A DNA stretch of 64,000 nt, from contig NZ_JADIKE010000036.1 of NCBI RefSeq assembly GCF_016904955.1, positions 76,021-140,020 on the forward strand, written 5' to 3'. Of the stretch, positions 34,411-64,000 are shown in pieces. Source of the stretch: Dyella flava (lineage in GTDB: Bacteria; Pseudomonadota; Gammaproteobacteria; Xanthomonadales; Rhodanobacteraceae). The position numbers and the translations under genes are program-made. The notes under the pieces were generated by a model, which ran no database searches, was not told the origin of the DNA, and saw only the letters and a program-made list of their open reading frames with translations. Numbering within the stretch: position 1 is the stretch's first letter; every line of letters begins with the position of its first letter.

Positions 34411-37400
34411 TTAGGCGACCCGCGGAACACCTGGAACAGAGTCCGCATGAGTAGCCGGTTGTTCGCGGCCATGCACGATGCTGAAGACTACCGGCACGAA
34501 GAGCAGCGTGGCGCAGGTAGCGAACAGCAAACCGCCGATCACGGCGCGGCCCAGCGGCGAGTTCTGCTCCTGCGTGATCGCCATCGGCAGCATGCCGAGG
34601 ATCATCGCCAGCGCGGTCATGCACACCGGGCGAAAACGCGTGAAACCCGCTTCCATCGCTGCCTTCATCGCGTCGCCGTGCTCGGCCAGCCGCTCACGCG
34701 CAAAGCTCACCACCAGGATCGAATTCGCCGTCGCCACACCCATGCACATGATCGCGCCGGTCAAGGCAGGTACGGACAGCGCCGTGTGCGTGACAAACAA
34801 TATCCACACGATTCCCGCCAGTGCAGCGGGCAGCGCCGTGATGATCACGAACGGGTCCAGCCACGACTGGAAGTTCACCACGATTAGCATGTAGATCAGC
34901 ACAATCGCACCTAACAAGCCGAACAGCAGGCCCGAGAACGCGATGTTCATCGCGGTTACCTGCCCCAGCAAGCGGATCACCGAACCTCTTGGACGATCTT
35001 TGGCGGCATTATCCAGAATACGTTGAACACCGTCGGACACCGCACCCAGATCACGCCCCTGCACCGCCGCATAGATATCAAAGGAAGGCGCGATGTCGTA
35101 ATGCGAAACCACGGCCGGCGTCGAGCTGCGCGTGATGCTCGCCAGCGCTCCGAGAATCTGCTTTGCCCCCGTTTCGGACGACGTGATGGGCAGGCTTTGC
35201 AGATTGGCCAAGCTATCTATGCGGTATTGCGGCGTCTGCGCGACAACAGCATAGGAGACACCATTGGCATGATTGAGCCAGAACGTGGGAGCCACCTGCA
35301 GACTGCCGGCCAGTGACGACACCATGCTGTCGGTCACATCACGTTCCGTGATACCGAGTTCATCCGCCCGTACGCGATCGACATCGACATTCAATTGCGG
35401 CATTCCGGTCGATTGCTGCAGCCTTACATCCGCGATGCCCGGTATGGCCCTCATTGCACGAAGAAGGCGAACCGCGTAAGCCTGATTGGCAAGATTGTTT
35501 TCCCCGGAGATTTTCACGTCCAGCGGCGCGGGGGCACCAAAATTGAGAATCTGGCTGACCATGTCCGCCGGCAGGAAGGCGAACGTCGTGCCGGGAAATT
35601 CACGCGGCAGCACCGCGCGCAGCGTCTTGGCGAAACCAGCGCTGGGATCGTGACCCTGCCGCAACAGGATCTGGATGTCGCCATCCTGTGGACCGATGGT
35701 TCCGCTGTTGTTGTAGACCATGTTGATGCCACTCAACGGCAGACCGATGTTGTCGATGATATCGTCGAGCTGATCCGGCGGAATGACCCGCCGAACAGCC
35801 GTTTCAATGTGATCGAACTCGGCCGCGGTATCTTCAATACGCGTGCCGATGGGCGCACGCACATGAATCGCGATGGCGTCCTCGTCGGTCGACGGGAAAA
35901 AGTTTCTGCCGAGGAACGGTACCAGGGCGAATGACACCACCACAAAGCCCAGAAAGGCCCACACAAATCGCCATCGTGCGCCAAGCGCCAACGCCAAGGT
36001 GGCGTGGTAGTTATCGCGAATCCGCATGAAGCGGCGCTCGAAGCCTTTTTGGAAGGACACCAGGGCATGATGCAATTTGCCGGCCTTTGGCGATGCACGT
36101 TGACCTTCCCCATGATGCTTGGCATCTGCCTTTTCCGGATGGCCGCTTTCCCCTGCTCCAGCCGCATGCGGCTTCAGCAGATACATGGCCATCGTCGGCA
36201 CCAGCGTACGCGACAGCACGAACGAAGACACCATGGCAAAGATCACCGCCAATGCCATCGGCCGGAACAGGAAGCCGGCAATACCATTGAGCTGGAACAT
36301 CGGCACGAACACGATGCAGATGCACAGCAGCGATACAAAGGCCGGTGTCACGATCTGCTTGGCGCCGTCCATGATCGCTGTACGTACATCCTTGCCATGC
36401 TCAAGATGCCAATTGATGTTTTCGATGGTGACGGTGGCGTCATCCACCAGGATACCGACGGCCAGCGCAAGACCGCCCAAAGTCATCACATTCAAGGTTT
36501 GCCCGAACGCCGACAACAAGGCGATGGCGGACAATATCGCCAGCGGAATCGATATGGCGATGATGACGGTCGAACGCCAACTGCCCAGGAACACCAAAAT
36601 CATCAGCGAGGTGAGGCAGGCGGCGATGATGCCTTCACGCGCGACCGAAGCGATGGCGCTGCGCACGAAGATCGACTGGTCCCCCAGCAAGGTGATCTTC
36701 AAGTCGCGGGGTAGCGTTTCTTTCGCCAACGGCAGCAGCTTTCTGATGCCGGCCACAATGTCCAGGGTCGACACGTTTCCGCCCTTGAGCATCGGCATCA
36801 GCACGGCCCGATGTCCGTCGACCCGCACCACGTTTTCCTGGGGCGGTGAACCATCACGCACATGCGCCACCTCGCCGATGGTGATGGTGGCGTTGTCGAT
36901 GGTCTTGATCGGAAGCCGGTTGAGCTCATTGATCGCCAGGGGGCTATCGTTCAACTCAACGGTGTATTCAAAATTGCCGATTTTGATCGTACCTACAGGC
37001 ACGATCTGGTTTTGCGCGGCAAGCGCGTTGCTAACGTCCTGTGCAGACAGCCCCTTGGCAGCCAGCGCCTGCGGATCCAGATCCAGCATGACTTGACGCT
37101 GTTTGCCGCCATAAGGCGTGGGGATAGCGACGCCGGGCACTGACACCAGCATCGGGCGCAAGAAGTTCTGCGCGAGATCGCGGGTTTTCTCCTCCGACAA
37201 TTGGGGGCTGGAAAGCGCCATCTGCAAGATGGGTACGGTGGAAGCGTTGTAGTTGAGGATGTCCGGCGGCGTGATGCCCGGCGGCATCTGCTTGAGCACG
37301 GTCTGTGAGATCGACGTGACTTGTGCCGTGGCAGTACGGATATCCACGCCAGGCTGAAAGAAGATCTTGACGACACCGATGCCTGGCAGCGACTGCGACT

Positions 37401-37647
37401 CGATGTGCTCGATGTCGTTGACCGTGGAAGTCAGTTGCCGCTCGTAGTAATAAATCACGCGGCCCGACATCGCCTCCGCAGACAGGCCGTTGTAGGTCCA
37501 TACCACGCTGATCACCGGAATGCCGATGTTCGGAAAAATGTCAGTGGGAGTACGCACGGCCGACAGCGGGCCGATCAGCAGGATGAACAGCGCCAGGACC
37601 ACGAACGTGTAAGGCCGTGCCAGCGCGATGCGGACCAGACCCAACAT
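34411..37647 (-). CDS. RND efflux transporter permease (second paralogue)
   Basis: 1078 residues from ATG 37647 (MLGLVRIALARPYTF); an upstream in-frame start would add a non-conserved stretch. AcrB-fold hallmarks are the first transmembrane helix, RTPTDIFPNIGIPVISVVW, the duplicated periplasmic porter regions and the central helices around LGGLALAVGILVDDATVTIENI, with the proton-relay Asp-Asp pair. It is nearly collinear with the permease at 40590-43826, has the same length, and is largely identical in the membrane segments. It lacks its own adaptor, so it probably shares the adaptor and outer-membrane factor upstream. The hairpin at 37760-37807 implies separate transcription. Confidence 0.9.
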   Translation of the reverse strand: MLGLVRIALARPYTFVVLALFILLIGPLSAVRTPTDIFPNIGIPVISVVWTYNGLSAEAMSGRVIYYYERQLTSTVNDIEHIESQSLPGIGVVKIFFQPGVDIRTATAQVTSISQTVLKQMPPGITPPDILNYNASTVPILQMALSSPQLSEEKTRDLAQNFLRPMLVSVPGVAIPTPYGGKQRQVMLDLDPQALAAKGLSAQDVSNALAAQNQIVPVGTIKIGNFEYTVELNDSPLAINELNRLPIKTIDNATITIGEVAHVRDGSPPQENVVRVDGHRAVLMPMLKGGNVSTLDIVAGIRKLLPLAKETLPRDLKITLLGDQSIFVRSAIASVAREGIIAACLTSLMILVFLGSWRSTVIIAISIPLAILSAIALLSAFGQTLNVMTLGGLALAVGILVDDATVTIENINWHLEHGKDVRTAIMDGAKQIVTPAFVSLLCICIVFVPMFQLNGIAGFLFRPMALAVIFAMVSSFVLSRTLVPTMAMYLLKPHAAGAGESGHPEKADAKHHGEGQRASPKAGKLHHALVSFQKGFERRFMRIRDNYHATLALALGARWRFVWAFLGFVVVSFALVPFLGRNFFPSTDEDAIAIHVRAPIGTRIEDTAAEFDHIETAVRRVIPPDQLDDIIDNIGLPLSGINMVYNNSGTIGPQDGDIQILLRQGHDPSAGFAKTLRAVLPREFPGTTFAFLPADMVSQILNFGAPAPLDVKISGENNLANQAYAVRLLRAMRAIPGIADVRLQQSTGMPQLNVDVDRVRADELGITERDVTDSMVSSLAGSLQVAPTFWLNHANGVSYAVVAQTPQYRIDSLANLQSLPITSSETGAKQILGALASITRSSTPAVVSHYDIAPSFDIYAAVQGRDLGAVSDGVQRILDNAAKDRPRGSVIRLLGQVTAMNIAFSGLLFGLLGAIVLIYMLIVVNFQSWLDPFVIITALPAALAGIVWILFVTHTALSVPALTGAIMCMGVATANSILVVSFARERLAEHGDAMKAAMEAGFTRFRPVCMTALAMILGMLPMAITQEQNSPLGRAVIGGLLFATCATLLFVPVVFSIVHGREQPATHADSVPGVPRVA

Positions 37648-37759
37648 ACGAAGGGTTCCAGTGACCACGATTGGGCGGAGTATCGCGCAATCGCGGACGA
37701 GGCGAAGCACGCCCGCTCAGGCTCGTGCTGATTCGTTCACAAACGCATCGAATAACCAA

Positions 37760-39399: not shown

Positions 39400-40600
39400 T
39401 GCTTTTCTCCGTAGCCACGTCTTGCGTCGCCAGATTCTGATTCGTGTCGGTTTCAACACGGACCTTGTCGCCGTCCATCAGCGAATCGGGCGGATTCTCG
39501 ATCACGTGGTCGGTGGGCTTGAGCCCCTGATCGATCTGCAGGCTCGAACCCAGATCCACCGCAATGTGCACATCGTGCAAGTGCGCGCGTCCATCCGGAC
39601 CCAGCACCGCTACTTGTGCCCCCTTCGAACGGAAAATCAACGCACTGGCTGGCACGCTGACCATGTTCGGATCCACCGGCAGATTGAGCTTCACATCGGC
39701 GTAGTCGCCGGGCTTGAGTGCGCCATCGCTATTGTCGGCAACGAACTGCGCCAGCAAGCTGCCAGAGTTCTGATTGATGGCTTCGGATGTGCCGATCAAG
39801 GTGGCCTTGAACGTACGACCTGGCAATTCGGGCACGTTCAGCGTGACCGTCATCCCGGGCTTGATGCCGTCAGCATTGACCTCCGGTACCGGCACATACA
39901 GGCGCATACGTGTGGTGTCAGCGACCGTGAACAATTCCGGTCCACTGTCGGTGTTGGCCGTGATCAGATCACCCACGTCCGTTCGGCGCGCCGTGACAGT
40001 GCCATCGAACGGCGCGACGATCTTCTTGAACGCTTCCAACGCATTCAGGCGATCCACATCGGCCTTGGCGGCCAGCACCGTAGCCTGGGCAGCTTCGGCT
40101 TCACCGCTTTTCTCGTCGGCCTCCTGTTTGGAGACCGAGTCGGAAGAAAGCAAATGCTGCCAGCGCCGCGAGGTGATATTGGCAAGATTGGCATCGGCCT
40201 GCGCCTTGGCCAGTACGGCCTTGGCTTGCTCTAGCTGCTGGTCCAGGTCTGGCGTATCGATCACGGCGAGTACATCGCCGGCCTTGACCTTGTCGCCGAT
40301 ATCCTTGTACCAGACCTTCAGATAGCCGCCGACGCGCGCATAGATCGGCGCGCTGTACCAGGCATCCAGGTGACCCGGCAAGGTGATGGCGTAGTCCTTG
40401 GCGGGATCCATGGCAGGAGCCAGCCGCACGCTCGGAATCAGCTGCGCATCGGTCCACTGCACCAATTGATGATGCTCGTGGAAGCGGATCCCCAGACCAA
40501 GGGCGACGGCAAGCACAGCGACTACCGCACCGCCGATACCGACGGCCTTGAGACGTGGCGGTTTCTGCGCGACTTGCACGGTAGCGGGATTATGCGACAT
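39383..40600 (-). CDS. RND efflux periplasmic adaptor (membrane fusion protein)
   Basis: 405 residues from ATG 40600, with AGGA upstream; the start lies inside the end of the permease gene (stop at 40590), indicating translational coupling. One N-terminal membrane anchor (GIGGAVVAVLAVALGLGI) is followed by the lipoyl half-motif ARVGGYLKVWYKDIGDKVKAGD, an alpha-hairpin rich in Ala/Gln/Lys, then the second lipoyl half around APFDGTVTARRTDVGDLI and a beta-barrel domain (LYVPVPEVNADGIKPG). It bridges the inner-membrane permease to the outer-membrane channel. Confidence 0.93.
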   Translation of the reverse strand: MSHNPATVQVAQKPPRLKAVGIGGAVVAVLAVALGLGIRFHEHHQLVQWTDAQLIPSVRLAPAMDPAKDYAITLPGHLDAWYSAPIYARVGGYLKVWYKDIGDKVKAGDVLAVIDTPDLDQQLEQAKAVLAKAQADANLANITSRRWQHLLSSDSVSKQEADEKSGEAEAAQATVLAAKADVDRLNALEAFKKIVAPFDGTVTARRTDVGDLITANTDSGPELFTVADTTRMRLYVPVPEVNADGIKPGMTVTLNVPELPGRTFKATLIGTSEAINQNSGSLLAQFVADNSDGALKPGDYADVKLNLPVDPNMVSVPASALIFRSKGAQVAVLGPDGRAHLHDVHIAVDLGSSLQIDQGLKPTDHVIENPPDSLMDGDKVRVETDTNQNLATQDVATEKSSESAH

Positions 40601-43600
40601 GGGGAAGTCCTGGGATAGAGTCCGGATTGGGAGCCACTTGTTCGCGGCCGTGAACGATGCTGAAGACCACCGGCACGAAGAGCAGCGTGGCGCAGGTGGC
40701 GAACAGCAAGCCACCGATGACGGCACGGCCCAGCGGCGCGTTCTGCTCATGCGTGATCGCCATCGGCAGCATGCCGATGATCATCGCGAGCGCGGTCATG
40801 CACACCGGGCGGAAGCGCGTAAAACCTGCCTCCAGCGCCGCCTTCAATGCGTCGCCATGCTCAGCCAGCCGTTCACGCGCAAAGCTCACTACCAGAATCG
40901 AGTTCGCCGTCGCCACGCCCATGCACATGATCGCGCCGGTCAAGGCAGGCACCGACAACGTTGTGTGCGTGACGAACAATATCCACACGATCCCGGCCAG
41001 CGCCGCCGGCAACGCCGTGATGATCACGAACGGGTCCTGCCACGACTGGAAGTTCACCACGATCAGCATGTAGATCAGCACGATCGCGCCCAGCAAACCG
41101 AACAGCAGGCCCGAGAATGCCGTATTCATGGCCGTCACCTGGCCGAACAGGCCCACCGTGGACCCTTTCGGACGCTCCTTCGCCGCCTGATCGAGCACGT
41201 GTTGGATATCGCTGGCCACCGAGCCAAGATCGCGTCCCTGCACAGCGGCGAAGATGTCGAACGACGGCTCGATGTTGTAGTGAGTAACCACGGCCGGCGC
41301 GGTCGTGCGCACAACCTTGGCGACGGCACCGAGGATCTGCTGCGCGCCGTTACCTGACGAGGTGATCTGCAAGCTGTTCAGATCAGCCATGGAGTCGACA
41401 CTGTATTGCGGTGTCTGCGCCACGATCGGATACGACACACCGTTTTTCGGATTCAACCAGAACACAGGAGCTACCTGCGAGCTTCCGGCCAGCGTGGAGA
41501 CCATGCTGTCGGTCACGTCGCGCTCGGTAATGCCCAGCTCGTCAGCGCGAACGCGATCCACATCCACATTCAACTGTGGCTCGCTGTCCGACTGCTGCAA
41601 GCGGACGTCGGCAATGCCCGGGATGCCGCGCATCTTGCGCATCAGCTCAAGCGCATAGGCCTGGTTCTCCTCGAAATTGCGGCCGGTCACTTTGACATCC
41701 AAAGGTGCCGGCGCACCGAAGTTGAGGATCTGGCTGGCCATATCCGCCGGCAGGAAGGCGAATTCCGTGCCGGGGAACAGACGCGGCAGCATCGCACGCA
41801 GCTTCTTGACGTATTCGTCGGTCGAAGCATGATCAGGCTTGAGCAACACCTGTATATCGCCATCCTGCGGCCCGACCGTACCGGTGTTGCTGTAGACCAA
41901 GTTGGTGCCGCTAAGCGGCAGACCGATGTTGTCGGCGATGGTGTCGAGCTGGTCCGGCGGAATGATGCGACGAATAGCCGCCTCGACATGGTCGAATTCC
42001 GCCGCTGTATCTTCGATACGCGTGCCGACCGGAGCACGAACGTGGATAGCAATGGAATCAGCCTCGACATTCGGGAAGAAATCGCGCCCCAGGAACGGCA
42101 CCAACAAGAAGGACGCGAGCACCACGCCGAGAAAGCCGATGACGAAACGACGGCGGTTATCCAGCGCGAGCGACAGCGTGCCGTAGTACACCTCGCGGAT
42201 TTTGGAGAAGCGATGTTCGAAACCTTGCTGGAACGACACCAGCATACTGCGCAACTTGCCGCGCTTCAGCGACGGATGCTGGTCACCGACGTGATGATTG
42301 ATAAACGGATCTTCCGGATGATCGCCAGGCGCCTTCTCCAGCACGTGCGGCTTGAGCAAGTACATCGCCAAGGTCGGCACCAGGGTGCGCGACAACACGA
42401 ACGAAGACATCATCGCGAAAATCACCGCCAGCGCCATCGGCCGGAACAGGAACCCGGCAATGCCGCCGAGCATGAACATCGGCACGAACACGATGCAAAT
42501 GCATAGCAGCGACACAAAAGCCGGTGTCACGATCTGCTTGGCGCCATCCATGATCGCCGTATGCACATCCTTGCCTTGTTCCAAATGCCAATTGATGTTC
42601 TCGATCGTCACCGTGGCGTCGTCGACCAGAATACCTACCGCCAGCGCAAGGCCACCCAGTGTCATCACATTCAAGGTCTGCCCGAACGCCGACAGCAGCG
42701 CGATAGCGGACATCACCGCCAGCGGAATCGATACGGCAATGATGACGGTAGAGCGCCAGCTGCCTAGAAACACCAGGATCATGATCGAGGTAAGGCACGC
42801 GGCAATGATGCCTTCGCGCGCCACCGACGTAATCGCCGCGCGCACGAACACCGACTGGTCACCCATCAGGTTCAATTTCAGCGACGACGGCAGCGTTTCT
42901 TTGGCCAGTGGCAACAGTTTCTTGATGCCGGCAACAATGTCCAGCGTCGACACGTCGCCACCTTTGAGGAATGACATCAACACCGCACGATGCCCGTTCA
43001 CACGCACCTCGTTAGTCTGCGGTGGCGAGCCAGCATGCACGTGCGCCACGTCACCGATGGTGATGGTGGCGCCGTTCACGGTTTTGATCGGCAGATTGTT
43101 CAGCTCTGCAATGACTTCGGGGCTATCGTTGAGATTGGCGATGTACTCGTAGTGGCCGATCTTGATCGTACCGACTGGAATGATCTGGTTCTGCGCCGCC
43201 AACGCATTGCTAACGTCTTGCGCGGAAAGACCCTTGGCGGCCAACGCCTGCGGGTCGAGGTCGATCATCACTTCAGGATTTTTACCGCCATAAGGCGAGG
43301 GAATCGCCACGCCATCTACCGACAACAGCATCGGGCGCAGGAAGTTTTGCGCGGTATCGAGAATATTTTCTTCCGACAGCTTGTTGCTGGATAGCGCCAT
43401 CTGCAGGATGGGCACCGTGGAGGCGTTGTAGTTGATGATCTGCGGCGGCGTTGTGCCCGGCGGCATCTGCTTGAGCACGGTCTGCGAGATGGAGGTGACC
43501 TGCGCAGTGGCTGTGCGGATGTCCACACCTGGCTGGAAGAAAATCTTCACCACACCGAGGCCCGGCAGCGACTGCGATTCGATGTGCTCGATGTCGTTGA

Positions 43601-43826
43601 CCGAATTGCCGAGCTGGCGTTCGTAGTAATAGATCACGCGACCCGACATATCCCTCGGCGACAGACCCGTGTAGCTCCACACCACGCTGATCACCGGAAT
43701 GCCGATGTTCGGGAAAATGTCCGTCGGCGTGCGCAGCGCGGCAAGCGGACCGACCAGCAGGATAAACAGCGCGAGGACAATGAAAGTGTAAGGGCGCGCA
43801 AGCGCTATCCGGACTAGAGCCAACAT
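40590..43826 (-). CDS. RND efflux transporter permease (first paralogue)
   Basis: 1078 residues from ATG 43826. AcrB-fold: MLALVRIALARPYTF, RTPTDIFPNIGIPVISVVW, VGILVDDATVTIENI with the Asp-Asp relay, and a central cytoplasmic loop between the two halves (about 500-530). It is followed, with overlap, by adaptor and outer-membrane factor genes, so it is the lead gene of a tripartite pump. The permease is aligned residue-for-residue with its paralogue at 34411-37647; differences cluster in the cytoplasmic loop and porter domain. Substrate is unknown. A response regulator/kinase pair lies immediately upstream on the same strand and may regulate it. Confidence 0.93.
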   Translation of the reverse strand: MLALVRIALARPYTFIVLALFILLVGPLAALRTPTDIFPNIGIPVISVVWSYTGLSPRDMSGRVIYYYERQLGNSVNDIEHIESQSLPGLGVVKIFFQPGVDIRTATAQVTSISQTVLKQMPPGTTPPQIINYNASTVPILQMALSSNKLSEENILDTAQNFLRPMLLSVDGVAIPSPYGGKNPEVMIDLDPQALAAKGLSAQDVSNALAAQNQIIPVGTIKIGHYEYIANLNDSPEVIAELNNLPIKTVNGATITIGDVAHVHAGSPPQTNEVRVNGHRAVLMSFLKGGDVSTLDIVAGIKKLLPLAKETLPSSLKLNLMGDQSVFVRAAITSVAREGIIAACLTSIMILVFLGSWRSTVIIAVSIPLAVMSAIALLSAFGQTLNVMTLGGLALAVGILVDDATVTIENINWHLEQGKDVHTAIMDGAKQIVTPAFVSLLCICIVFVPMFMLGGIAGFLFRPMALAVIFAMMSSFVLSRTLVPTLAMYLLKPHVLEKAPGDHPEDPFINHHVGDQHPSLKRGKLRSMLVSFQQGFEHRFSKIREVYYGTLSLALDNRRRFVIGFLGVVLASFLLVPFLGRDFFPNVEADSIAIHVRAPVGTRIEDTAAEFDHVEAAIRRIIPPDQLDTIADNIGLPLSGTNLVYSNTGTVGPQDGDIQVLLKPDHASTDEYVKKLRAMLPRLFPGTEFAFLPADMASQILNFGAPAPLDVKVTGRNFEENQAYALELMRKMRGIPGIADVRLQQSDSEPQLNVDVDRVRADELGITERDVTDSMVSTLAGSSQVAPVFWLNPKNGVSYPIVAQTPQYSVDSMADLNSLQITSSGNGAQQILGAVAKVVRTTAPAVVTHYNIEPSFDIFAAVQGRDLGSVASDIQHVLDQAAKERPKGSTVGLFGQVTAMNTAFSGLLFGLLGAIVLIYMLIVVNFQSWQDPFVIITALPAALAGIVWILFVTHTTLSVPALTGAIMCMGVATANSILVVSFARERLAEHGDALKAALEAGFTRFRPVCMTALAMIIGMLPMAITHEQNAPLGRAVIGGLLFATCATLLFVPVVFSIVHGREQVAPNPDSIPGLPHVA

Positions 43827-43956: not shown

Positions 43957-45351
43957 TCAGGCCGCTGGTTTCAGTGGGCATTCCATACCCATACGCGTGC
44001 CGGCACCATCCCCACCGATGCTCAGCTCAAAGTCATGCAATTTGGCGATGGCGGCCACAATGCTCAGCCCCAGACCGTGGCCCAAAGCATCCCGGTTGCC
44101 GTCTCCGCGATAGAAGCGCTGCCATACCGCGTGACGTTGCTCTTCCGGAATGCCGGGGCCGCTGTCGGCCACTTCGATATGCGCCAGATCCGGTCCGGTC
44201 CGCCGCACCGACAGACCAACCTGCCCACCTACCGGGGTGAACTTGATAGCGTTGCTGACCAGGTTGCCGATCGCTTCGAACAGCAGGTCCGGATCGGCTT
44301 GCACAATCAACCCGGGCTCAGTGTGAAGTTCGAACTGCAACTGCTGATCTTCGGCCAGCGGGGCATAAAGCTCATGCACCCTTTCCAGGATCTCGCCAAG
44401 ATCGACATCCACAAAACCTTCGCGACGGCGACGGTCTTCCAGCTCGGAAATGCGCAGCAAGGCCCGGAATCGCGCCAGCACCTCGTCGACATCCGAAGCG
44501 CAGCGCTCGATCAGCGACGCATGCGGATCTTCTTCGCTGAGCTCTTGTTGGACGCGGTAGAGCTGCGAGCGCAGGCGCGTCAGCGGGGTACGCAGATCGT
44601 GCGCGATGCTGTCGCAGACGCCTTTCACCTCGCCCATCAGGCGTTCAATCTGATCAAGCATGTCGTTGACGATCGCCGCGAGTCGATCCAGCTCATCGCC
44701 GCGATGGCTGACCGGCAGACGCTGACGCAGATCGCCACGCATGATCGGCTGAGTAGCCGACTCAATCAATCGTATGCGGCGCCGAGGCCCCAGATTAAGA
44801 ATCAAACCACCGATAAGACCCGGTACAAGGGTGAACGAAACACCCCACATCACGGCATGCGAAATGATGTTGCCAACCTGTGCTGCAATACGTGTGGTAT
44901 GCGCCAGCACCAGTATCTGGCCGTTATTGAGGCGTGTAGCGATGACGGAAAGCGTCGACGTTGCAGGTGCAAACGGCCCGCTGATCACCTGCTCGGTGGG
45001 CATGCGCACGGAATCCGAATCGATCTTCAACCCGCCCGGAAATTGCAGCACGTCGCCGTAAAGCCATTTTTTGTTGGCGTCAAATAGCCCCCAAGCGTTG
45101 TAATTGGTGCGCTCCAGAATGATGTAGTCATTCAGCGCCACCAGCATATGGTCCGGGTCAAGACTACGCAGATAGGTGATCTGCTGCTTGAGCTGCATAT
45201 CCGTACGCGTTTCCAGGTAATGCAGGGTTTCCCAATAGGTATAGCCCAACAGCGCCGTGCCCCAGATGACGAAAAACACACCGTAGGCAAGCAGCAGGCG
45301 CGACGTCGTCGCGCGCCAGTGGATCGACAGGTTTCTCGGGGTACTAACCAA
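43957..45351 (-). CDS. Sensor histidine kinase (OmpR-partner type)
   Basis: 464 residues read from a TTG at 45351 that overlaps the response-regulator stop (TTGGTTAG); the exact start is uncertain. Two membrane helices flank a periplasmic sensor of about 140 residues (first helix LLLAYGVFFVIWGTALLGYT, second near WGVSFTLVPGLIGGLIL). A HAMP linker (SATQPIMRGDLRQRLPVSHRGDELDR) precedes the H-box SIAHDLRTPLTRLRSQ and the ATPase domain with NLVSNAIKFTP, DSGPGIPEEQ and GHGLGLSIV. Likely partner of the adjacent regulator and a candidate controller of the RND operon that begins 130 bases downstream. Confidence 0.9.
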   Translation of the reverse strand: MVSTPRNLSIHWRATTSRLLLAYGVFFVIWGTALLGYTYWETLHYLETRTDMQLKQQITYLRSLDPDHMLVALNDYIILERTNYNAWGLFDANKKWLYGDVLQFPGGLKIDSDSVRMPTEQVISGPFAPATSTLSVIATRLNNGQILVLAHTTRIAAQVGNIISHAVMWGVSFTLVPGLIGGLILNLGPRRRIRLIESATQPIMRGDLRQRLPVSHRGDELDRLAAIVNDMLDQIERLMGEVKGVCDSIAHDLRTPLTRLRSQLYRVQQELSEEDPHASLIERCASDVDEVLARFRALLRISELEDRRRREGFVDVDLGEILERVHELYAPLAEDQQLQFELHTEPGLIVQADPDLLFEAIGNLVSNAIKFTPVGGQVGLSVRRTGPDLAHIEVADSGPGIPEEQRHAVWQRFYRGDGNRDALGHGLGLSIVAAIAKLHDFELSIGGDGAGTRMGMECPLKPAA

Positions 45352-46018
45352 GGCGATACCCCGAGCCGCGCATGGTGCGGATCAATGATGGCTCACCGTC
45401 GTTGTCGACCTTTCGGCGCAGGCGTGCGATATGCACATCAATCAAGTTGGTGCCTGGATCGAAGCGCAGGCCCCACACACTTTCGAAAATCATCGCCCGG
45501 GTCAGCACCTGTCCCGGGTAACGCATGAGGAATTCCAGCAGGCGATATTCGGTAGGCAACAAAGTCAACTCGCGACTGCCGCGACGCGCCGTGCGACTGA
45601 TCATGTCCAGCTCCAGATCGGCGACGCGCAACCGGGTCTGCGCCGGATGCTCCTGCCGATGCCGTCGCAACAGCACCTCGACACGCGCTGCCATCTCATC
45701 CGGCGCAAAGGGTTTGGTGAGGTAATCGTCGCCGCCTGCACGCAGACCGCGCACGCGCTCATCGACATCACCCAACGCACTGATCATCAGCACCGGCGTG
45801 CGGATACCGCGCTCGCGCAACTGCGTCACGAGGGTCAGACCATCCATGCCGGGCAGCATCAGATCCAGCGTGATCGCGTCGAAGTGCGGCTCCAGCGCGC
45901 GTTGGAAACCCTGCTCGCCGTCATGCACGCGCTCGGCAGTGATGCCGTGCGAAGCCAGCTCCAGCACGATTTCGCGCGCAGTGATTTCGTCGTCTTCGAT
46001 GACCAGGATATGGGACAT
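45344..46018 (-). CDS. OmpR-family response regulator
   Basis: 224 residues from ATG 46018. The receiver has the acid pair in VIEDDEITAREI, phospho-acceptor Asp in AITLDLMLPGMDGL (about residue 52), Ser in LMISALGDVDER and Lys in YLTKPFAPDE. The winged-helix C-terminus contains LTLLPTEYRLLEFLMRYPGQ and IDVHIARLRRKVDNDG. It is the first gene of a run regulator-kinase-RND permease-adaptor-channel on the minus strand, so it probably activates or represses that pump. Kinase start overlaps its stop. Confidence 0.92.
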   Translation of the reverse strand: MSHILVIEDDEITAREIVLELASHGITAERVHDGEQGFQRALEPHFDAITLDLMLPGMDGLTLVTQLRERGIRTPVLMISALGDVDERVRGLRAGGDDYLTKPFAPDEMAARVEVLLRRHRQEHPAQTRLRVADLELDMISRTARRGSRELTLLPTEYRLLEFLMRYPGQVLTRAMIFESVWGLRFDPGTNLIDVHIARLRRKVDNDGEPSLIRTMRGSGYRLG

Positions 46019-56410: not shown

Positions 56411-57076
56411 ATGCGCATCCTGCTAGTTGAAGACGATCCCCTGGTATCCGACGCCATCGTGCGGGGCCTGGCCACCGCTGGCTATGTGGTAGACGCGGTC
56501 ACCGACGCCGAATCCGTCCAAAGCCGCCTGGACACCACCCACTACGACCTTGCGATCGTGGATCTGGGACTACCTGGCGAAGATGGCTTCACCCTGGTCC
56601 GCCGCCTGCGCCGCGAGGGCAGTCCGCTGCCGCTGCTGATCGTGACCGCGCGCGATGGTCTGGACGACCGCGTCAATGCGCTGGACCTGGGCGCGGACGA
56701 TTACCTGGTCAAACCTTTCGCCCTGCCCGAGCTGGCCGCGCGCTGCCGCGCGCTGATTCGCCGCGCCACGGCCGCCACCGCCAATGAAATGGTGGTGGGC
56801 CGCCTGCGCATTGACCTGGCTGGACGCCGCGCCATCGATGACAGCGGCCGGGTGCTCGAACTGACGCGTCGCGAATGGTCGATCCTGGAATGTCTCGCCC
56901 ACCATAGTGGCCGGGTGGTCAGCAAGGAACGCCTGATCCAGGCCATCGTCAGCTGGGATGAGGAAATTTCCGGCAACGCGATCGAAGTGCATGTATCGCG
57001 TTTGCGTGCAAAACTGGGCGAGGCGGCCACGGTGCGCGGCATCCGTGGCCTCGGCTACCGCCTCGATGACGCCTAG
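56411..57076 (+). CDS. OmpR-family response regulator (QseB/TctD-like)
   Basis: 221 residues from ATG 56411. Receiver: LVEDDPLVSDAI, phospho-acceptor Asp in LAIVDLGLPGEDGFT (about residue 51), Thr in IVTARDGLDD and Lys in YLVKPFALPE. Winged-helix output: LTRREWSILECLAHHSGR and IEVHVSRLRAKLGE. Its partner kinase begins 31 bases downstream. The pair resembles QseBC/TctDE-type systems; the signal is unknown. An FNR box upstream suggests oxygen-linked expression. Confidence 0.93.
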   Translation: MRILLVEDDPLVSDAIVRGLATAGYVVDAVTDAESVQSRLDTTHYDLAIVDLGLPGEDGFTLVRRLRREGSPLPLLIVTARDGLDDRVNALDLGADDYLVKPFALPELAARCRALIRRATAATANEMVVGRLRIDLAGRRAIDDSGRVLELTRREWSILECLAHHSGRVVSKERLIQAIVSWDEEISGNAIEVHVSRLRAKLGEAATVRGIRGLGYRLDDA

Positions 57077-57107
57077 GAAACCCTGACGATCCGACGTAGG
57101 CGGCACG

Positions 57108-58604
57108 ATGTCCCGTTCCCACCCCAGGAGAGCTCCCAGCATTCGTGGCCGTTTGCTCGGCTATCTGCTGCTGCCTCTCGTGCTGTTGCTGATCGCCAGC
57201 ATCTGGGCTGACCATCGCACCTACGTCACCCCGATGTACGACATCTTCGATCGCGCGCTCTCGCATTCCGCGGTGGCGATCGCATCGCATGTGCAAAAGG
57301 CGCCCGATGGGCGCCTTTACGTGGATAGGCAGGATCCGGGACCGCCACTAATTCATCCCCCGGGCGCGGAACCGATGCCGCCACCGCCCGGCGATGAGCC
57401 CTTTGAGCGAGCCAGACCACCTGGGCGCCTCGATCCCGAGTATCGCCCCATGTCTTGGATGCGGTTTTATTCGGGTGCGCGGGAAACCTTCGTCTACCGC
57501 GTCAGCCTGGCAGACGGGAGCACCCTGGCCGGCGAGGAAGGATTACCCATCGCTACCGGCAGGATCGTCGACAACCTCACCTATGGCGACGCGCATTACA
57601 AGCAGCGTTCCCTGCGCATAGCCAGCTATCACACCGAAGTCGGCGGCCAGCCCGTCATCGTGACCGTCGGCGAGACGGTGAATCGGCGCGACGCGGTGGT
57701 GCGGCGGCTGGATACCGTGGTCGGACTCAGCGACGGCATCCAGCTGGCGCTGGTGCTCGGCGTTTGCCTGTTCGGCATCACAGTGGCGTTGCGCCCGATC
57801 AACCGCTTGCGCGACCAGATCATGCGCCGCGAACCGCAGTCGCTACAGCCTCTGGCACTGGAGCCGGTGCCGGGCGAAGTGCGTCCGCTGGTGGAATCGC
57901 TCAATACCTTGCTGGTGACGGTGCGCGACTCCACCCTGGCCCAGCAACATTTTCTGACCAATGCCGCGCATCAATTGCGCACCCCGCTCACCGGTCTGAA
58001 AGCACAGCTGGAAGTACTTGCCAGCGAAATCCAGGACAACGCGCAGCAGGAGCGGATCAGCCGCCTGCAAGGCAGTGTGGATCGCCTTGCGCATACCGCC
58101 AACCAATTACTGGCGTTGGCGCGCGCCGAGCCCTCGGCACACGGTCCAGGCGATTTCGTCGCGATCCAGCTCGACTCGCTGATCGGCGCCGTCGTCAGCT
58201 CCCTGCTGGATCGCGCGCTGGCGCATGACATCGACCTCGGCGCCGAATGCGAACCGGCGCAGGTCCACGGCGTGTACTGGCTGCTGCATGAGTTACTGAT
58301 CAATCTGCTCGACAACGCCATCCGCCACACGCCCAAGGGCGGCAATATCACTCTGCGCTGCGGTCGGCATGCAGGGGCGCCCTATCTGGAAGTGGAAGAT
58401 AGCGGTCCAGGCGTTCCGCCCGCCGAGCGCGAACGCGTGCGCGAGCGTTTCTATCGCGCGGCCGGCAGCGATGGCCAAAGCAGCGGCCTGGGGCTGGCGA
58501 TCGTCGAGGAAATCGCGCGTGCCCATCGCGCACGTTTCGAGATACTTGATGCCCTTGAGGGAACCGGTGCGCGCATGCGTATCGAATTCCCGGCAAATGC
58601 CTAA
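57108..58604 (+). CDS. Sensor histidine kinase, TctE/QseC-like with 2CSK-type sensor
   Basis: 498 residues from ATG 57108. Two membrane helices (about 16-34 LLGYLLLPLVLLLIASIW, and about 200-216 GIQLALVLGVCLFGITVAL) enclose a periplasmic sensor with a proline-rich insertion (GPPLIHPPGAEPMPPPPGDE). The sensor layout (RALSHSAVAIASHV... YRVSLADGSTLAGEEGLP) fits the 2CSK_N domain of tricarboxylate-type kinases. H-box: NAAHQLRTPLTGLKAQ; ATPase motifs NLLDNAIRHTPKGG, DSGPGVPPAE and GLGLAIVEEIA. The region spanning its start resembles one end of the dispersed repeat at 25636. Confidence 0.92.
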   Translation: MSRSHPRRAPSIRGRLLGYLLLPLVLLLIASIWADHRTYVTPMYDIFDRALSHSAVAIASHVQKAPDGRLYVDRQDPGPPLIHPPGAEPMPPPPGDEPFERARPPGRLDPEYRPMSWMRFYSGARETFVYRVSLADGSTLAGEEGLPIATGRIVDNLTYGDAHYKQRSLRIASYHTEVGGQPVIVTVGETVNRRDAVVRRLDTVVGLSDGIQLALVLGVCLFGITVALRPINRLRDQIMRREPQSLQPLALEPVPGEVRPLVESLNTLLVTVRDSTLAQQHFLTNAAHQLRTPLTGLKAQLEVLASEIQDNAQQERISRLQGSVDRLAHTANQLLALARAEPSAHGPGDFVAIQLDSLIGAVVSSLLDRALAHDIDLGAECEPAQVHGVYWLLHELLINLLDNAIRHTPKGGNITLRCGRHAGAPYLEVEDSGPGVPPAERERVRERFYRAAGSDGQSSGLGLAIVEEIARAHRARFEILDALEGTGARMRIEFPANA

Positions 58605-60177: not shown

Positions 60178-60801
60178 ATGGCACACGCTCCGTTTCTCGC
60201 CGGATTGCTGCTCGGCGCATCGTTGATCGTTGCCATTGGCGCGCAGAATGCTTTTGTTCTGCGTCAAGGACTGTTGCAGGCACATCGGTTCCCGGTAGCC
60301 TTGTTTTGCGCACTCTCCGATGCCGTGCTTATCGCTGCGGGAGTCGGTGGGCTGGGGATCGCGGTAGGACAGCATCCGCGTGTGCTTGCACTGATCGCAT
60401 GCGTCGGCGCGCTGGTGTTGATTTGGTACGGCGTGCAGGCACTGCGGCGTGCCTTTCATCCGCAGGTGCTGACACCCGATACACACGGCAAGACCAGCAG
60501 CATGTGGCGTGTGATCGCCACATGCGCCGGATTCACCTGGCTCAATCCGCACGTGTACCTGGATACGGTGCTGCTGATCGGCAGTCTGGCCTCGGCCTGG
60601 CCTGCACCGTTGCCGCGTACGTTATTCGCCATCGGCGCCGCCACCGCATCCTTTATCTGGTTTTTTTCGCTAGCTTACGGCGCGCGCCTGCTTGCTCCAT
60701 TGTTCCGTAAAGCAACCGCCTGGCGCGTGCTCGACGTGCTGATCGCCGTAGTCATGTGGAGCATCGCCATCAAGCTGTTGCTGTCGTTTCTGACAGACTG
60801 A
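60178..60801 (+). CDS. argO: LysE/ArgO family amino-acid exporter
   Basis: 207 residues from ATG 60178; a TTG at 60163 has a better ribosome-binding site (AAGGA) and would add five residues. Six hydrophobic helices are visible. The N-terminus GLLLGASLIVAIGAQNAFVLRQG and the segment ATCAGFTWLNPHVYLDTVLLIGSL match ArgO (arginine exporter, whose version reads TWLNPHVYLDT). Export of basic amino acids is the likely role; arginine versus lysine cannot be separated. Probably co-transcribed with the glutamate-cysteine ligase gene. Confidence 0.85.
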   Translation: MAHAPFLAGLLLGASLIVAIGAQNAFVLRQGLLQAHRFPVALFCALSDAVLIAAGVGGLGIAVGQHPRVLALIACVGALVLIWYGVQALRRAFHPQVLTPDTHGKTSSMWRVIATCAGFTWLNPHVYLDTVLLIGSLASAWPAPLPRTLFAIGAATASFIWFFSLAYGARLLAPLFRKATAWRVLDVLIAVVMWSIAIKLLLSFLTD

Positions 60802-61263
60802 TCAGTCCCGCGTGCGAATGCCCAGCCAGCGCGCCACCAAGGTATCCAGACTGATCTTGCCGGGACCGGCCATCAGGAACCAGCAGAAGATCAGCGTGTA
60901 GACCACTTCGTCGGCTTCGACGTAATCGTCCAGCCCCATCAGGTTGCTCGACACCACCAGGGTGACGGCCACAATCATGTTGATGATCATCGGAATGGTC
61001 ACCAGGCGAGTGAACAGTCCAAGCATCAACAGCAAGCCGCCCAGCAATTCCGTCCAGGCCGACAGTGCCGCACTGAACGCCGGGAATGGAATGCCCCATC
61101 CCATGAAGCGCTGGGTGAAGCCAGCCAGGTTATGCACTTTGGCGATGCCGGTCTCGAGCCAGAAGTACCCAAATACCACGCGTACCACCAGCGGCCCAAG
61201 CCAACGCCCGGCATGCAGGATGCTGAGCACTTGCGAGCACTTTTCAGCGAGAAATTGACGCAT
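60802..61263 (-). CDS. DoxX family membrane protein, divergent to the bufferin-like genes
   Basis: 153 residues from ATG 61263, with AAGGA upstream. Four hydrophobic helices with the DoxX opening GRWLGPLVVRVVFGYFWLETGIAKVHNLAGF and TELLGGLLLMLGLFTRLVTIPMIINM. DoxX proteins of this kind accompany MNIO-type (DUF692) clusters (as HvfD/BufD-like members), where they are thought to handle redox in the membrane. Here the gene is divergent from the putative precursor-enzyme genes, sharing a 279-bp intergenic region with them. Participation in the same system is inference from location. Confidence 0.85.
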   Translation of the reverse strand: MRQFLAEKCSQVLSILHAGRWLGPLVVRVVFGYFWLETGIAKVHNLAGFTQRFMGWGIPFPAFSAALSAWTELLGGLLLMLGLFTRLVTIPMIINMIVAVTLVVSSNLMGLDDYVEADEVVYTLIFCWFLMAGPGKISLDTLVARWLGIRTRD

Positions 61264-61542
61264 TGCACATATTCCTTGGCATGAAGTAGGTGCATGATGC
61301 GCGAACCCGCTTTAGGCCTGCCATATCCATGCGTCCAGGCTTTCTTGCTCGGAATCCGGGGCTAACAAGCCCGCATGCAAACCGGACGATCGGGCATAAA
61401 AGCGGGATGCGCAGATGCAGTCCTCTAGGCAACGAAGCAACACAATGACCCTGTCGAAGCCGGCAAGCGGATCACCCCGGTTACTGGATAAGACATTCCC
61501 AAAGCCGCATGGCGGCGAACGAAACCTTTAGGAGCCATAGAC
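61264..61542. promoter_or_regulatory. Divergent promoter region, doxX / bufferin-like cluster
   Basis: 279 bases with no gene. It must contain promoters for both directions. I see no confident operator; a metal-responsive or ECF-sigma element is plausible but not shown. Confidence 0.4.
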
Positions 61543-61812
61543 ATGAATATCAAGACAGTCAACGCCAGCGCCATGGCCGTTATCGTGGCCGGCCTGTTCG
61601 CCGCTGCCGCCATGAACACCGCCGTGGCCAGCACCCCGGCCGGCGACCAGGCGGGGGTCAAGTGCCTGAATTCCTCGTCCTGTAAAGGCCAAGGCGCCTG
61701 CAAGCAAGCCACCAATTCGTGCAAGGGCCAGAATGCTTGCAAGGGTCAGGGCTTCACCATGCAGAAGACCCAGGCTGACTGTGCTGCCGCACAAGCCGCT
61801 GCGAAGAAGTAA
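61543..61812 (+). CDS. bufA: Bufferin-like exported cysteine-rich RiPP precursor
   Basis: 89 residues from ATG 61543 with a strong TTTAGGAG. A Sec signal (MAVIVAGLFAAAAMNTAVAS) has an AVA-S cleavage site near residue 29. The mature part has six cysteines (41, 47, 53, 60, 66, 80), four followed by Lys, in CKGQ-type repeats (SSCKGQGACK, NSCKGQNACKGQG). Such CKGQ-rich periplasmic peptides next to DUF692 genes are the bufferin-type metallophores; their cysteines are modified by the MNIO enzyme into thiooxazole-type groups that bind copper. The enzyme genes follow after a strong hairpin. Modification and metal here are inferred. Confidence 0.82.
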   Translation: MNIKTVNASAMAVIVAGLFAAAAMNTAVASTPAGDQAGVKCLNSSSCKGQGACKQATNSCKGQNACKGQGFTMQKTQADCAAAQAAAKK

Positions 61813-61819
61813 TGCTTGT

Positions 61820-61852
61820 AGTGGGGCGCAGTGCAAAGCAGTGCGCCCCACT
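61820..61852 (+). terminator. Attenuator-like hairpin between bufA and bufB
   Basis: Perfect 11-bp GC-rich stem AGTGGGGCGCA/TGCGCCCCACT (61820-61830/61842-61852), 11-nt loop, only 7 bases after the bufA stop. The following tail is only weakly T-rich, so partial termination or mRNA 3'-end stabilisation is more likely than a full stop. Confidence 0.7.
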
Positions 61853-61881
61853 CTTACATTCATTGTCCGGTAGCCCAGACC

Positions 61882-62739
61882 ATGGCCATGAACAAGATGG
61901 AACGCGCCGATCGCCTCCCCTATCTCGGCTACGGGCTGGGTTTGCGCACCGAACATTACGAGGCACTGCTGGCCGATCCGGGCAAGGTGCAATGGCTGGA
62001 AGTGGTTTCGGAAAACTACATGGTGAGCGGCGGCCTGCCGCTGGTATGGCTGGAGCGATTTCGCGAACGCTTTCCATTGGTGATGCATGGCGTATCGATG
62101 TCGATCGGCAGCACCGATCCGCTCGATAACGACTATCTCGCGCGACTGGTTGCACTGGCGCAACGCATCGAACCGGCCTGGATTTCCGATCACCTGTGCT
62201 GGACTGGCGTACAAGGCGTGAATCTTCACGACCTGATGCCGCTGCCTTATACCGAAGAAGCCCTTGATCACGTCGTCGATCGCGTCAGGCGTGTGCAGGA
62301 CACGCTCAAGCGCCGCATCTTGCTGGAGAACGTTTCCAGCTACGTGAGCTTTGCCGATTCTCAACTGACGGAATGGGACTTCCTGGCCTCGGTGGCCGAA
62401 CGTGCCGATTGCCTGATTCTGCTCGACATCAACAATGTGCATGTCAGTGCCATGAATCATGGCTTCTCGCCGCAGGATTATCTGCGAGGCATTCCTGTCT
62501 CGCGCGTGCAACAGTTTCATCTCGCCGGTTATGAGCAAGGTGAGCAGCTGATCATCGATACCCATGACGCACCCGTGTCACATGCCGTGTGGGATCTGTA
62601 TATCGACGCCGTACGCAGGTTCGGGCGAGTCTCGACCATGATTGAACGCGACGACCACTTTCCGCCACTGACCGAACTACTAACCGAACTTGAGCATGCA
62701 CGCGCATTGGCTGAGCCCTTGCTGCGAGATGCTGCATGA
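61882..62739 (+). CDS. bufB: DUF692/MNIO-family iron oxidase (peptide-modifying enzyme)
   Basis: 285 residues from ATG 61882 (MAMNKMERAD). DUF692 TIM-barrel motifs are complete: GYGLGLRTEHYEALL, VSENYMVSGG, HGVSMSIGS, ISDHLCWTG, NLHDLMPLPYTEEAL, ILLENVSSYVSF, LLDINNVHVSAMNHGFSP, VQQFHLAGYEQ and IDTHDAPV. These supply the His/Glu/Asp ligands of the multinuclear iron centre. The family includes MbnB, TglH and HvfB, which oxidatively modify cysteines on precursor peptides. Its presence between the cysteine-rich precursor and DUF2063 defines the cluster. It overlaps the next gene by 4 bases. Confidence 0.9.
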   Translation: MAMNKMERADRLPYLGYGLGLRTEHYEALLADPGKVQWLEVVSENYMVSGGLPLVWLERFRERFPLVMHGVSMSIGSTDPLDNDYLARLVALAQRIEPAWISDHLCWTGVQGVNLHDLMPLPYTEEALDHVVDRVRRVQDTLKRRILLENVSSYVSFADSQLTEWDFLASVAERADCLILLDINNVHVSAMNHGFSPQDYLRGIPVSRVQQFHLAGYEQGEQLIIDTHDAPVSHAVWDLYIDAVRRFGRVSTMIERDDHFPPLTELLTELEHARALAEPLLRDAA

Positions 62740-63515
62740 ATTCGTTGCAAGCCATCCAGCAGCAAATGCTGCAAGCCGTGCTGGCAGAAAGAGCGCACTT
62801 GCCTTTCACCATTCGTGGCGACGCCATTGCCGATGCCGACAGCCGGCTCGCCGTTTATCGGCACGGTTATCGAATTCGTTTGCGCGATGCCCTGAAAAAC
62901 GAATTTGCCGGCCTGCGCAGCATGGCTGAACAGCGATTCCAGCGCATGCTGGACAAATACGTCGCCGCGCATCCTTCCGAGCACTACAACATTCGCTGGT
63001 ACGGTGCAGGGCTGGCGGCTTTCCTCGACTATGCGCGCCCTTGGCGCGAGCAGCCGCAATGGGCCGAAATGGCTCGCCTGGACTGGGCCATCTCGACCGC
63101 CTTCGATGCCGAGGACGAAGCCTGCATCGGCATGGTCGAGCTGTCATCCGTGCCATCTGATACCTGGCCCGGTCTGCTCCTTTCGCTGCAGCAGAACCTG
63201 CACATCCTGGCCGCCCACTACAACATCGAGGCCTTCCGGCGTGCCGCCGATCGTGGCGACAAACGTCCACGCCTGCGCCGTTTTGAGCAGGCCCGCCAGA
63301 TACTGGTGTGGCGTAAAGCGATGTCCGTCCACTACCGCCTGCTGGAAGAGGATGAGTGGCAGGTCCTGAGCGCCGTCATACAAGGCGAGCCCTTCGCTTC
63401 ATTGTGCGAACGCATGGCCAACCTCCACGACGAAACCAGCGCGACGCCGCGCATGGTGATGCTGCTGCAAGGCTGGCTGGAAGCCGGCCTGATCCGTGGC
63501 TGGAGCTTCGGCTAA
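62736..63515 (+). CDS. bufC: DUF2063 / HvfC-BufC-type partner protein
   Basis: 259 residues from ATG 62736, inside the end of the enzyme gene (ATGA overlap). The N-terminal DUF2063 motif RLAVYRHGYRIRLRDALKNEFAGLRSMAEQRFQRML is the conserved 'putative DNA-binding' module. In MNIO systems this partner is thought to recruit the precursor to the oxidase rather than bind DNA. A C-terminal segment (LLEEDEWQVLSAVIQGEPFASLCERM) is likely winged-helix-like. Tight coupling with the oxidase supports a complex. Confidence 0.88.
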   Translation: MNSLQAIQQQMLQAVLAERAHLPFTIRGDAIADADSRLAVYRHGYRIRLRDALKNEFAGLRSMAEQRFQRMLDKYVAAHPSEHYNIRWYGAGLAAFLDYARPWREQPQWAEMARLDWAISTAFDAEDEACIGMVELSSVPSDTWPGLLLSLQQNLHILAAHYNIEAFRRAADRGDKRPRLRRFEQARQILVWRKAMSVHYRLLEEDEWQVLSAVIQGEPFASLCERMANLHDETSATPRMVMLLQGWLEAGLIRGWSFG

Positions 63516-63679
63516 CTCGTGTTTCCGCGCCTGCCGGGACCCCACCTTACCCTGGCTGATCCGCCTTGCTGCCCCTCCGAGGCGGCCTATCGCCTGCGCG
63601 AAAGGTAGACACTCCGTGTAACCCGCACCAGCTTCCGGCGAAGAAAGAGGCATAGCGCCACGTCACGGAAGCCCTGCCC

Positions 63680-64000
63680 ATGTCGATTGAGCACCACCCC
63701 ACCCTGGCCGCCCACACCCATCACCATGCTGTCGCACCTGCCCTCGAGTCCTTGCTCAATCACTCGATGCTGCGAGTCGACATAGTCGCTGAGGAGCAAT
63801 ACTGCGGCTCCTGGTTCATGGACGAACCTCGCTACCATTGCGGCCTTTTCCATCTCGTCGGCACCGGCGAATGCCTGGTCGAAAGCTCCGCTTTCAGCGA
63901 AGCGCTACATCTGGAAGCCGGCGATCTGGTCGTGCTTCCGCATGGCGATCCGCATCGACTTTACGCACGCAACGACCACGAAGAAACCGTCACCAGTCTT
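63680..64000 (+). CDS. AraC-family regulator, N-terminal cupin part (3' truncated by window edge)
   Basis: 107 codons from ATG 63680 to the window end, with CGGAAG upstream. The start has a His-rich stretch (HTHHH), followed by a cupin-type ligand domain: SWFMDEPRYHCGLFHLVGTGECLV, then LEAGDLVVLPHGDPHRLYA, which is the Cupin_6 pattern of AraC-type regulators. The helix-turn-helix domain would lie beyond the window. Other cupin proteins remain possible. No link to the bufferin-like genes can be shown, although the gene is 164 bases downstream. Confidence 0.65.
   Translation, partial: MSIEHHPTLAAHTHHHAVAPALESLLNHSMLRVDIVAEEQYCGSWFMDEPRYHCGLFHLVGTGECLVESSAFSEALHLEAGDLVVLPHGDPHRLYARNDHEETVTSL

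What the first reader, a model, noticed from the sequence alone, without database searches (positions are those of the whole stretch)
60802..63515. Complete bufferin-like RiPP metallophore locus with divergent DoxX
A cysteine-rich exported peptide with CKGQ repeats, a DUF692/MNIO oxidase and a coupled DUF2063 partner are consecutive, with DoxX divergent. Family knowledge (MbnB, TglH, HvfB) says MNIO enzymes modify precursor cysteines; the periplasmic bufferins bind copper. This precursor has six cysteines at spacings of 6, 6, 7, 6 and 14, so the number and type of modifications could differ from characterised bufferins. The DoxX gene is oriented away from the rest, which is a variant layout.
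Basis: partly seen in the sequence, partly recalled or inferred. Interest (0 to 1): 0.9.

Follow-up and report, generated by a model that had tools for sequence, protein, structure and literature searches.

The report
Copper-buffering peptide locus, probable own regulator
This is an ordinary bacterial gene set for making a peptide expected to bind excess copper, and the DNA beside it carries a mirrored pair of conserved sites and a likely regulator gene that suggest how these bacteria may switch it on.

Summary
In detail: doxX, bufA, bufB and bufC lie at 60802-63515 as described. The core is a standard Buf2 bufferin locus: peptide and MNIO enzyme pass NCBIfam's BufA2 and BufB cut-offs. The supposed oddities are normal: cysteine spacing 6-6-7-6 occurs in 66 of 75 precursors compared, and doxX is divergent in the 14 nearest relatives. 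The nearest enzyme relatives are Dyella.

The doxX-bufA gap holds two copies of a 28-bp element, one pointing at each gene; 16 of 16 genus genomes held carry the pair. An AraC-family gene, distantly RclR-like, follows bufC (63680 to past the window end). Among 77 BufA2 loci of the family, 34 of 34 with this gene carry the element and 0 of 43 without it do. The association rests on only two changes on the tree and one orphan copy exists, so the link is a hypothesis. Predicted mechanism: four inner Cys-Lys cysteines become thiooxazoles, the exported peptide binds copper, and doxX and bufABC are switched on together. Modification, copper binding and regulator binding were not testable.

The parts
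60802..61263 (-). doxX, divergent membrane protein (DoxX family)
   Evidence: PF07681 60.2 bits; HvfX NF050144 69.3 bits, below its cut-off of 80
61331..61358 (-). 28-bp element copy pointing at doxX
   Evidence: 0 mismatches to CGGAYNNNNRGNNANAAANNNNGGAYGC (the pattern was drawn from this and related sites)
61383..61410 (+). 28-bp element copy pointing at bufA
   Evidence: 0 mismatches
61543..61812 (+). bufA2 precursor, 89 aa, six Cys; inner four are Cys-Lys; signal peptide probably residues 1-29 (judged by eye)
   Evidence: NF050166 64.4 bits, cut-off 60; cysteine positions
61882..62739 (+). bufB, MNIO enzyme (possible earlier GTG start at 61831)
   Evidence: NF050167 385 bits, cut-off 310; PF05114 370.6 bits; sequence relatives of solved 3BWW, 8HCI/8HI7 and MbnB chains
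62736..63515 (+). bufC, DUF2063 partner protein (PME type 1)
   Evidence: PF09836 64.1 bits, cut-off 27.2; HvfC NF050145 29.1 bits, cut-off 142, not met
63680..64000 (+). AraC-family regulator gene, cupin + helix-turn-helix, 303 aa; runs past the window end to 64591 (read on L093)
   Evidence: PF12852 94.2 bits, PF12833 67.4 bits; RclR NF040475 130.2 bits, cut-off 400, not met; linkage

Best explanation
A Buf2 bufferin locus of a Dyella-like bacterium. Inferred mechanism: BufC (DUF2063) presents the BufA2 precursor to the iron oxidase BufB, which converts the four inner Cys-Lys cysteines (47, 53, 60, 66) to 5-thiooxazoles in the cytoplasm. The Sec signal then sends the peptide to the periplasm, cysteines 41 and 80 probably pair as a disulfide, and the peptide binds excess copper. 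The divergent doxX belongs to the same unit: doxX and bufABC share an intergenic region with two outward-pointing copies of one 28-bp element. The AraC-family protein encoded after bufC most likely binds these and switches both transcripts on under copper or thiol-oxidant stress. Shown here: family membership, gene order, conservation, the paired element and its association with the AraC gene. Inferred: the chemistry, copper binding, disulfide, regulator-element binding and inducer.
For: Family cut-offs met. 6-6-7-6 spacing in 66 of 75 precursors; among those 66, Cys 2, 3, 4, 5 are followed by Lys in 64, 49, 61, 63, and Cys 6 in 7. BufB reads ERD-D where 3BWW reads ERD-F; Asp stands there in 78 of 81 loci. 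I take this as the Phe-to-Asp site that PMC13097082 reports for Cys-Lys-type enzymes; I did not see the FonB sequence, so the mapping is inferred. Paired element in 16 of 16 genus genomes held, while the other matches equal the reversed-pattern control, 100 against 99 (counted). The two copies resemble each other more than column shuffles allow (1 of 100,000 as high; 1 of 20,000 with best offset). 34 of 34 loci with the AraC gene carry at least one element, 0 of 43 without it. The AraC gene is present in 10 of 10 close relatives with the element; the six other flanking genes found at all are in 2 to 5 of the 10 (5-kb flanks).
Against: The association has only two changes on the BufB tree, so a sign test cannot reach significance. 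Seven divergent-doxX loci lack both element and AraC gene, so neither is needed for a bufferin locus. One genome (G019) keeps the AraC gene where doxX, bufABC and the element are missing, so the regulator may have other targets. Three related AraC genes lie elsewhere without the element. The protein is 27% identical to E. coli RclR, and no Cys stands at E. coli Cys21. BufC gave no sequence match to a solved structure at E up to 1.
Confidence: 0.72

Rival explanations
1. An ordinary Buf2 locus whose paired element is a pair of promoters or sites for another factor; the AraC gene is only a stable neighbour in this clade.
For: Loci with gene and element are near-relatives, with only two changes on the tree; the element's two boxes lie 22 bp apart start to start, close to a -35/-10 spacing (sequences); the AraC gene survives without the locus in G019.
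Against: The AraC gene stays in 10 of 10 close relatives where other neighbours mostly do not; 35 of 39 matches over 260 bits sit beside buf genes; gene and element are absent together in 43 of 43 other loci.
Confidence: 0.3
2. The bufferin serves mainly another stress (gold, other metals or reactive chlorine) rather than copper.
For: Some bufferin operons were named for gold induction, and 5-thiooxazole pathways respond to oxidants (PMC12452194, PMC13097082); the best NCBIfam match of the regulator is RclR, reactive-chlorine-specific in E. coli.
Against: Bufferins and captophorins are reported to bind copper; the RclR match is far below its cut-off (130 of 400 bits).
Confidence: 0.15
3. The OmpR-type two-component system at 56411-58604 controls the locus.
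For: It lies in the same window (domains); its response regulator matches heavy-metal regulator models below their cut-offs.
Against: The response regulator is found near the locus in 3 of 10 and the kinase in 4 of 10 close relatives that have the element (the 5-kb flanks may cut some).
Confidence: 0.05

Closest known systems
Buf2 bufferins (BufA2/BufB/BufC; Buf2 of Caulobacter vibrioides)
   Same: Precursor and enzyme families over NCBIfam cut-offs, six cysteines, gene order bufABC, DUF2063 partner, doxX nearby (PMC12452194)
   Different: In this clade: first motif KCxxSSxC, last gap 14 and divergent doxX, plus the paired element and the AraC-family gene; the main text of PMC12452194 holds no 'AraC'
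Captophorins, Cys-Lys group (PMC13097082)
   Same: Cys-Lys motifs in the precursor and Asp at the position after ERD in the enzyme
   Different: The chemistry here is unmeasured; the examples whose structures I saw described are EGKCG or DUF2282 types
Rcl system of E. coli (rclABC with RclR)
   Same: AraC-family regulator; E. coli Cys89 corresponds to Cys109, conserved in 38 of 38; a copper-linked stress system in E. coli
   Different: 27% identity, NCBIfam RclR cut-off not met (130 of 400 bits), no Cys at Cys21; none of the locus genes scanned was named RclA, B or C, though no dedicated search was made

Membership tests
Buf2 bufferin | Precursor matches BufA2 model (NF050166, cut-off 60) | tested here: met
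   64.4 bits; 63.5 bits in the genome search
Buf2 bufferin | Six conserved cysteines (6 or 12) | tested here: met
   Six, at 41, 47, 53, 60, 66, 80; spacing 6-6-7-6 shared by 66 of 75, window included
Buf2 bufferin | MNIO enzyme of bufferin type (NF050167, cut-off 310) | tested here: met
   385 bits
Buf2 bufferin | DUF2063 (PME type 1) partner after the enzyme | tested here: met
   PF09836 64.1 bits, cut-off 27.2
Buf2 bufferin | N-terminal Sec signal peptide | tested here: inconclusive
   Hydrophobic stretch and AVA-ST cleavage-like site seen in the sequence; no signal predictor was run
Buf2 bufferin | Oxidised cysteines (loss of 4 H each) and copper binding | not testable with these tools
   Needs mass spectrometry and metal binding
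HvfA/HvfB oxazolin (EGKCG) type | HvfB NF003818 over 360 bits; HvfC NF050145 over 142; HvfX NF050144 over 80 | tested here: not met
   269.5, 29.1 and 69.3 bits
RclR | NF040475 over 400 bits | tested here: not met
   130.2 bits
RclR | Redox cysteines 21 and 89 (named in PMC7464077) | tested here: not met
   Cys89 counterpart in 38 of 38; no Cys at Cys21 in 38 rows, though a Cys lies three columns on in 37 of 38

The most novel reading that the evidence does not exclude
A bufferin regulon of this Dyella-Rhodanobacter group in which a dedicated cysteine-rich, RclR-like AraC regulator senses copper or thiol oxidants and fires doxX and bufABC together from a mirrored pair of operators, linking copper buffering to an oxidant sensor and making DoxX a functional part of bufferin biology.
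Probability: 0.35. Interest if true: 0.62.

Novelty: new variant of a known kind. Interest (0 to 1): 0.43.

Why it matters
Loci with an MNIO enzyme and a DUF2063 partner occur in about half of Pseudomonadota reference genomes (PMC13097082). The landscape paper reports sigma factor and NrsF genes for Buf1 but not Buf2 loci (PMC12452194), and I found no Buf2 regulator in what I read. A mirrored pair of conserved elements and an adjacent candidate regulator give a direct genetic test of what induces a Buf2 bufferin. They also tie doxX, whose role in these loci is open, to the same switch.

Tried and rejected
Unusual cysteine number or spacing: rejected, it is the common pattern. Divergent doxX as a rare layout: rejected for this clade. 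Oxazolin/HvfA type: rejected, cut-offs not met. A wider regulon for the first-seen 25-bp block: 19 matches against 20 for the control in the own genome. In the window, with up to three mismatches, there were 8 matches against 3.3 expected, a number 3 of 100 shuffles reached; only one of the 8 had fewer than two mismatches. For the 28-bp element: 6 against 9 for the control in the own genome, and no excess in the genus once the pairs are set aside. The one 1-mismatch site elsewhere in the own genome (C38) lies inside an open frame of 770 aa. Sigma-70 promoter and terminator scan of 60700-63700: no excess over shuffles. Solved structures similar in sequence to BufC or the peptide: none at E up to 1. 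Metal ligands of MbnB from PMC8888699: my terms gave no passages, so I make no ligand-by-ligand claim. No structure prediction was run. The paper search on 'bufferin' matched 'buffering' and was useless; on 'bufferins' found 9 papers. One search (AraC with MNIO) held 29 papers and listed 12, none relevant by title; (DUF692, DoxX, AraC) gave one paper, whose 'AraC' hit is a plant name; (DUF2063 with AraC, whole words) gave none.

Full report
OBSERVATION. The cysteines are at residues 41, 47, 53, 60, 66 and 80. The peptide scores 64.4 bits against BufA2 (cut-off 60) and the enzyme 385 bits against BufB (cut-off 310). MNIO, DUF2063 and DoxX Pfam families are all over cut-off; Pfam has no match for the peptide. 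The nearest enzyme relatives are in Dyella choica (86% identity in the best segment) and D. monticola (88%), so the host is Dyella-like.

IS IT UNUSUAL? With the window that makes 81 loci, of which 75 gave a precursor and six did not (L020, L025, L026, L048, L056, L070). The spacing 6-6-7-6 occurs in 66 of the 75; the last gap is 13 in 51, 14 in 18, and 6 or undefined in six (only the last six cysteines of each frame were used). PMC12452194 (abstract, introduction, Results parts 1-3 of 4, discussion and passages read) states that 90% of Buf2 precursors have six conserved cysteines and that precursor, MNIO, DUF2063 and DoxX genes are the core. doxX is divergent and upstream in the 14 nearest loci, L006-L019, and in L081. 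Three others (L045, L065, L068) have doxX elsewhere, and none was found in the remaining 62; the profile was seeded on this DoxX, so that last number is an upper bound.

CHEMISTRY, INFERRED. In the 66 precursors with 6-6-7-6 spacing, cysteines 2, 3, 4 and 5 are followed by lysine in 64, 49, 61 and 63 cases; cysteine 6 in 7. In the window all four inner cysteines are Cys-Lys. PMC13097082 (abstract, section 6 part 1 of 4, sections 11, 13, 14 and passages read) reports 5-thiooxazoles with loss of four hydrogens per Lys-Cys repeat, and Asp in place of Phe next to the proposed catalytic Asp in Cys-Lys-type enzymes. Here the motif is ERD-D against ERD-F in 3BWW, and 78 of 81 loci have Asp; I infer that this is the same site, without having seen the FonB sequence. 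PMC12452194 says the outer cysteines of Buf1 form a disulfide (legend); I extend that to Buf2 by inference. It also says the Buf2 modification itself has not been identified, only that mass loss per cysteine and absorbance match Buf1.

A MIRRORED PAIR OF ELEMENTS. Aligning the doxX-bufA gap of 15 loci showed two conserved blocks in the window and L006-L015, not in L016-L019. Read outward, the blocks are two copies of one 28-bp element with the same internal spacing (CGGAY, then GGAYGC 22 bp on), at 61331-61358 (-) and 61383-61410 (+). I chose the alignment of the two by eye. Against column shuffles of 11 rows each (two rows nearly identical), 1 of 100,000 scored as high, and 1 of 20,000 when each shuffle could take its best offset. 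With up to two mismatches, 16 of 16 genus genomes held have both copies of the pair. The remaining 100 matches equal the 99 found with the reversed pattern (my count from the tables). So the element looks specific to this locus rather than part of a large regulon.

A CANDIDATE REGULATOR. An AraC-family gene (cupin plus helix-turn-helix) follows bufC at 63680 and ends at 64591, beyond the window. It is present in 10 of 10 loci with the element pair (L006-L015) and was not found in the 4 next loci without it (L016-L019). The six other flanking genes found at all are in 2 to 5 of the 10 (5-kb flanks limit this). To test the link I fetched BufA2 loci of the family. One search found BufA2 in 80 of 147 genomes at E <= 0.001, 59 over the cut-off, including all 12 drawn from the genus (12 checked against the genus list). 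Of its 84 places over the cut-off I left out 7 second halves of double precursors and 3 of the own genome, and added two just under it, giving 76; the other 28 rows below the cut-off were left out. With the window's own locus that is 77. Thirty-four have the AraC gene; all have divergent doxX, 32 with two elements of at least 16 bits and two with one (the second at 15.7 and 15.3). Forty-three lack the gene; none has an element (best 10.5 bits): 33 have doxX on the same strand, in 3 no doxX was found, 7 are divergent. The own genome's other BufA2 loci (L090, L091) lack both as well. The 16-bit threshold was set after seeing scores. Four further genus loci (L267-L270) were picked through the element and are not counted; all four fit.

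RESULTS AGAINST THE LINK. On a quick BufB tree the label changes only twice, and independent pairs number one or two, so the perfect table is not independent evidence. Of 46 AraC-type matches in the family search (at most 15 candidates scored per genome), 39 exceed 260 bits and 35 of those are beside buf genes. One (G019) remains where doxX, bufABC and the element are all missing. Three are related genes elsewhere without the element. Of the seven weaker matches I looked at one (G137): no buf genes, no element. The regulator may therefore have other targets. It matches RclR at 130.2 bits against a cut-off of 400 and is 27% identical to E. coli RclR. E. coli Cys89 is matched in 38 of 38, Cys21 in none, although a Cys three columns on is conserved in 37 of 38. 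PMC7464077 and PMC7527725 were seen as passages only.

A LIMIT OF THE COUNTS. The BufA2 model rang in none of the 14 control genomes, among them Caulobacter vibrioides (named as a control hit), for which PMC12452194 mentions a Buf2. The BufA2 counts are therefore lower bounds.

PRINT. The main text of PMC12452194 has no 'AraC' and no 'regulator'. PMC13097082 has no 'AraC' and one mention of co-occurring transcriptional regulators, in a supplementary table I did not see. Searches found no paper that I could see linking AraC with these loci;'s 29 papers I saw 12 titles. PMC12538549 was seen as outline and abstract only. Supplements and subscription papers, including the original bufferin paper, were not seen.

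VERDICT. The biosynthetic core is an ordinary Buf2 bufferin. The paired element and its associated AraC-family gene make a conserved regulatory variant that I did not find described. The membership is firm, the chemistry likely, the regulator plausible.

Noticed in passing
G000 contigs C15, C30, C32, C38 (L090, L091, L093, L092): The same genome holds five MNIO genes, three BufA2 over the cut-off, two DUF2282, four DUF2063 and eight DoxX matches, so the window's locus is one of several bufferin loci.
   Followed up: partly
L092 4970-6103 (C38; L005 1258-2391): A fifth MNIO gene (263 bits, below the BufB cut-off of 310) has no DUF2063 match on its contig; neighbours are an AhpC/TSA peroxiredoxin, a carboxymuconolactone decarboxylase family gene and a DUF417 membrane protein, the family annotated for E. 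coli RclC. I did not search for its precursor.
   Followed up: partly
L091 about 5097-8577 (C30): A composite locus: DUF2282, DoxX, alpha/beta hydrolase, BufA2, BufB, BufC, like the 'Pep4' order listed for Pseudomonas in PMC8719888. Its BufB has Gly, not Asp, after ERD (sequence).
   Followed up: partly
L276 941-1279 (G028): A relative's locus has doxX, bufB, bufC, the AraC gene and the element pair, but its bufA matches in two frames; a sequencing error or a broken precursor cannot be told apart.
   Followed up: no
L272 4275-5201 (G019): The AraC gene stands between frames that look like the window's glutamate-cysteine ligase and peptidase genes (judged from their first residues, not scanned), with doxX, bufABC and the element missing: apparently a natural loss.
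   Followed up: partly
L219-L225 (genus code g5): Seven BufA2 precursors match the model twice in one frame, as expected for 12-cysteine Buf2; doxX is on the same strand in six, and none was found in L222, which ends with its contig.
   Followed up: no
window 34411-37710 and 40590-43826 (-): Two neighbouring AcrB-type RND transporter genes of similar length, with an apparent response regulator and kinase at 43957-46018 judged from frames only.
   Followed up: no
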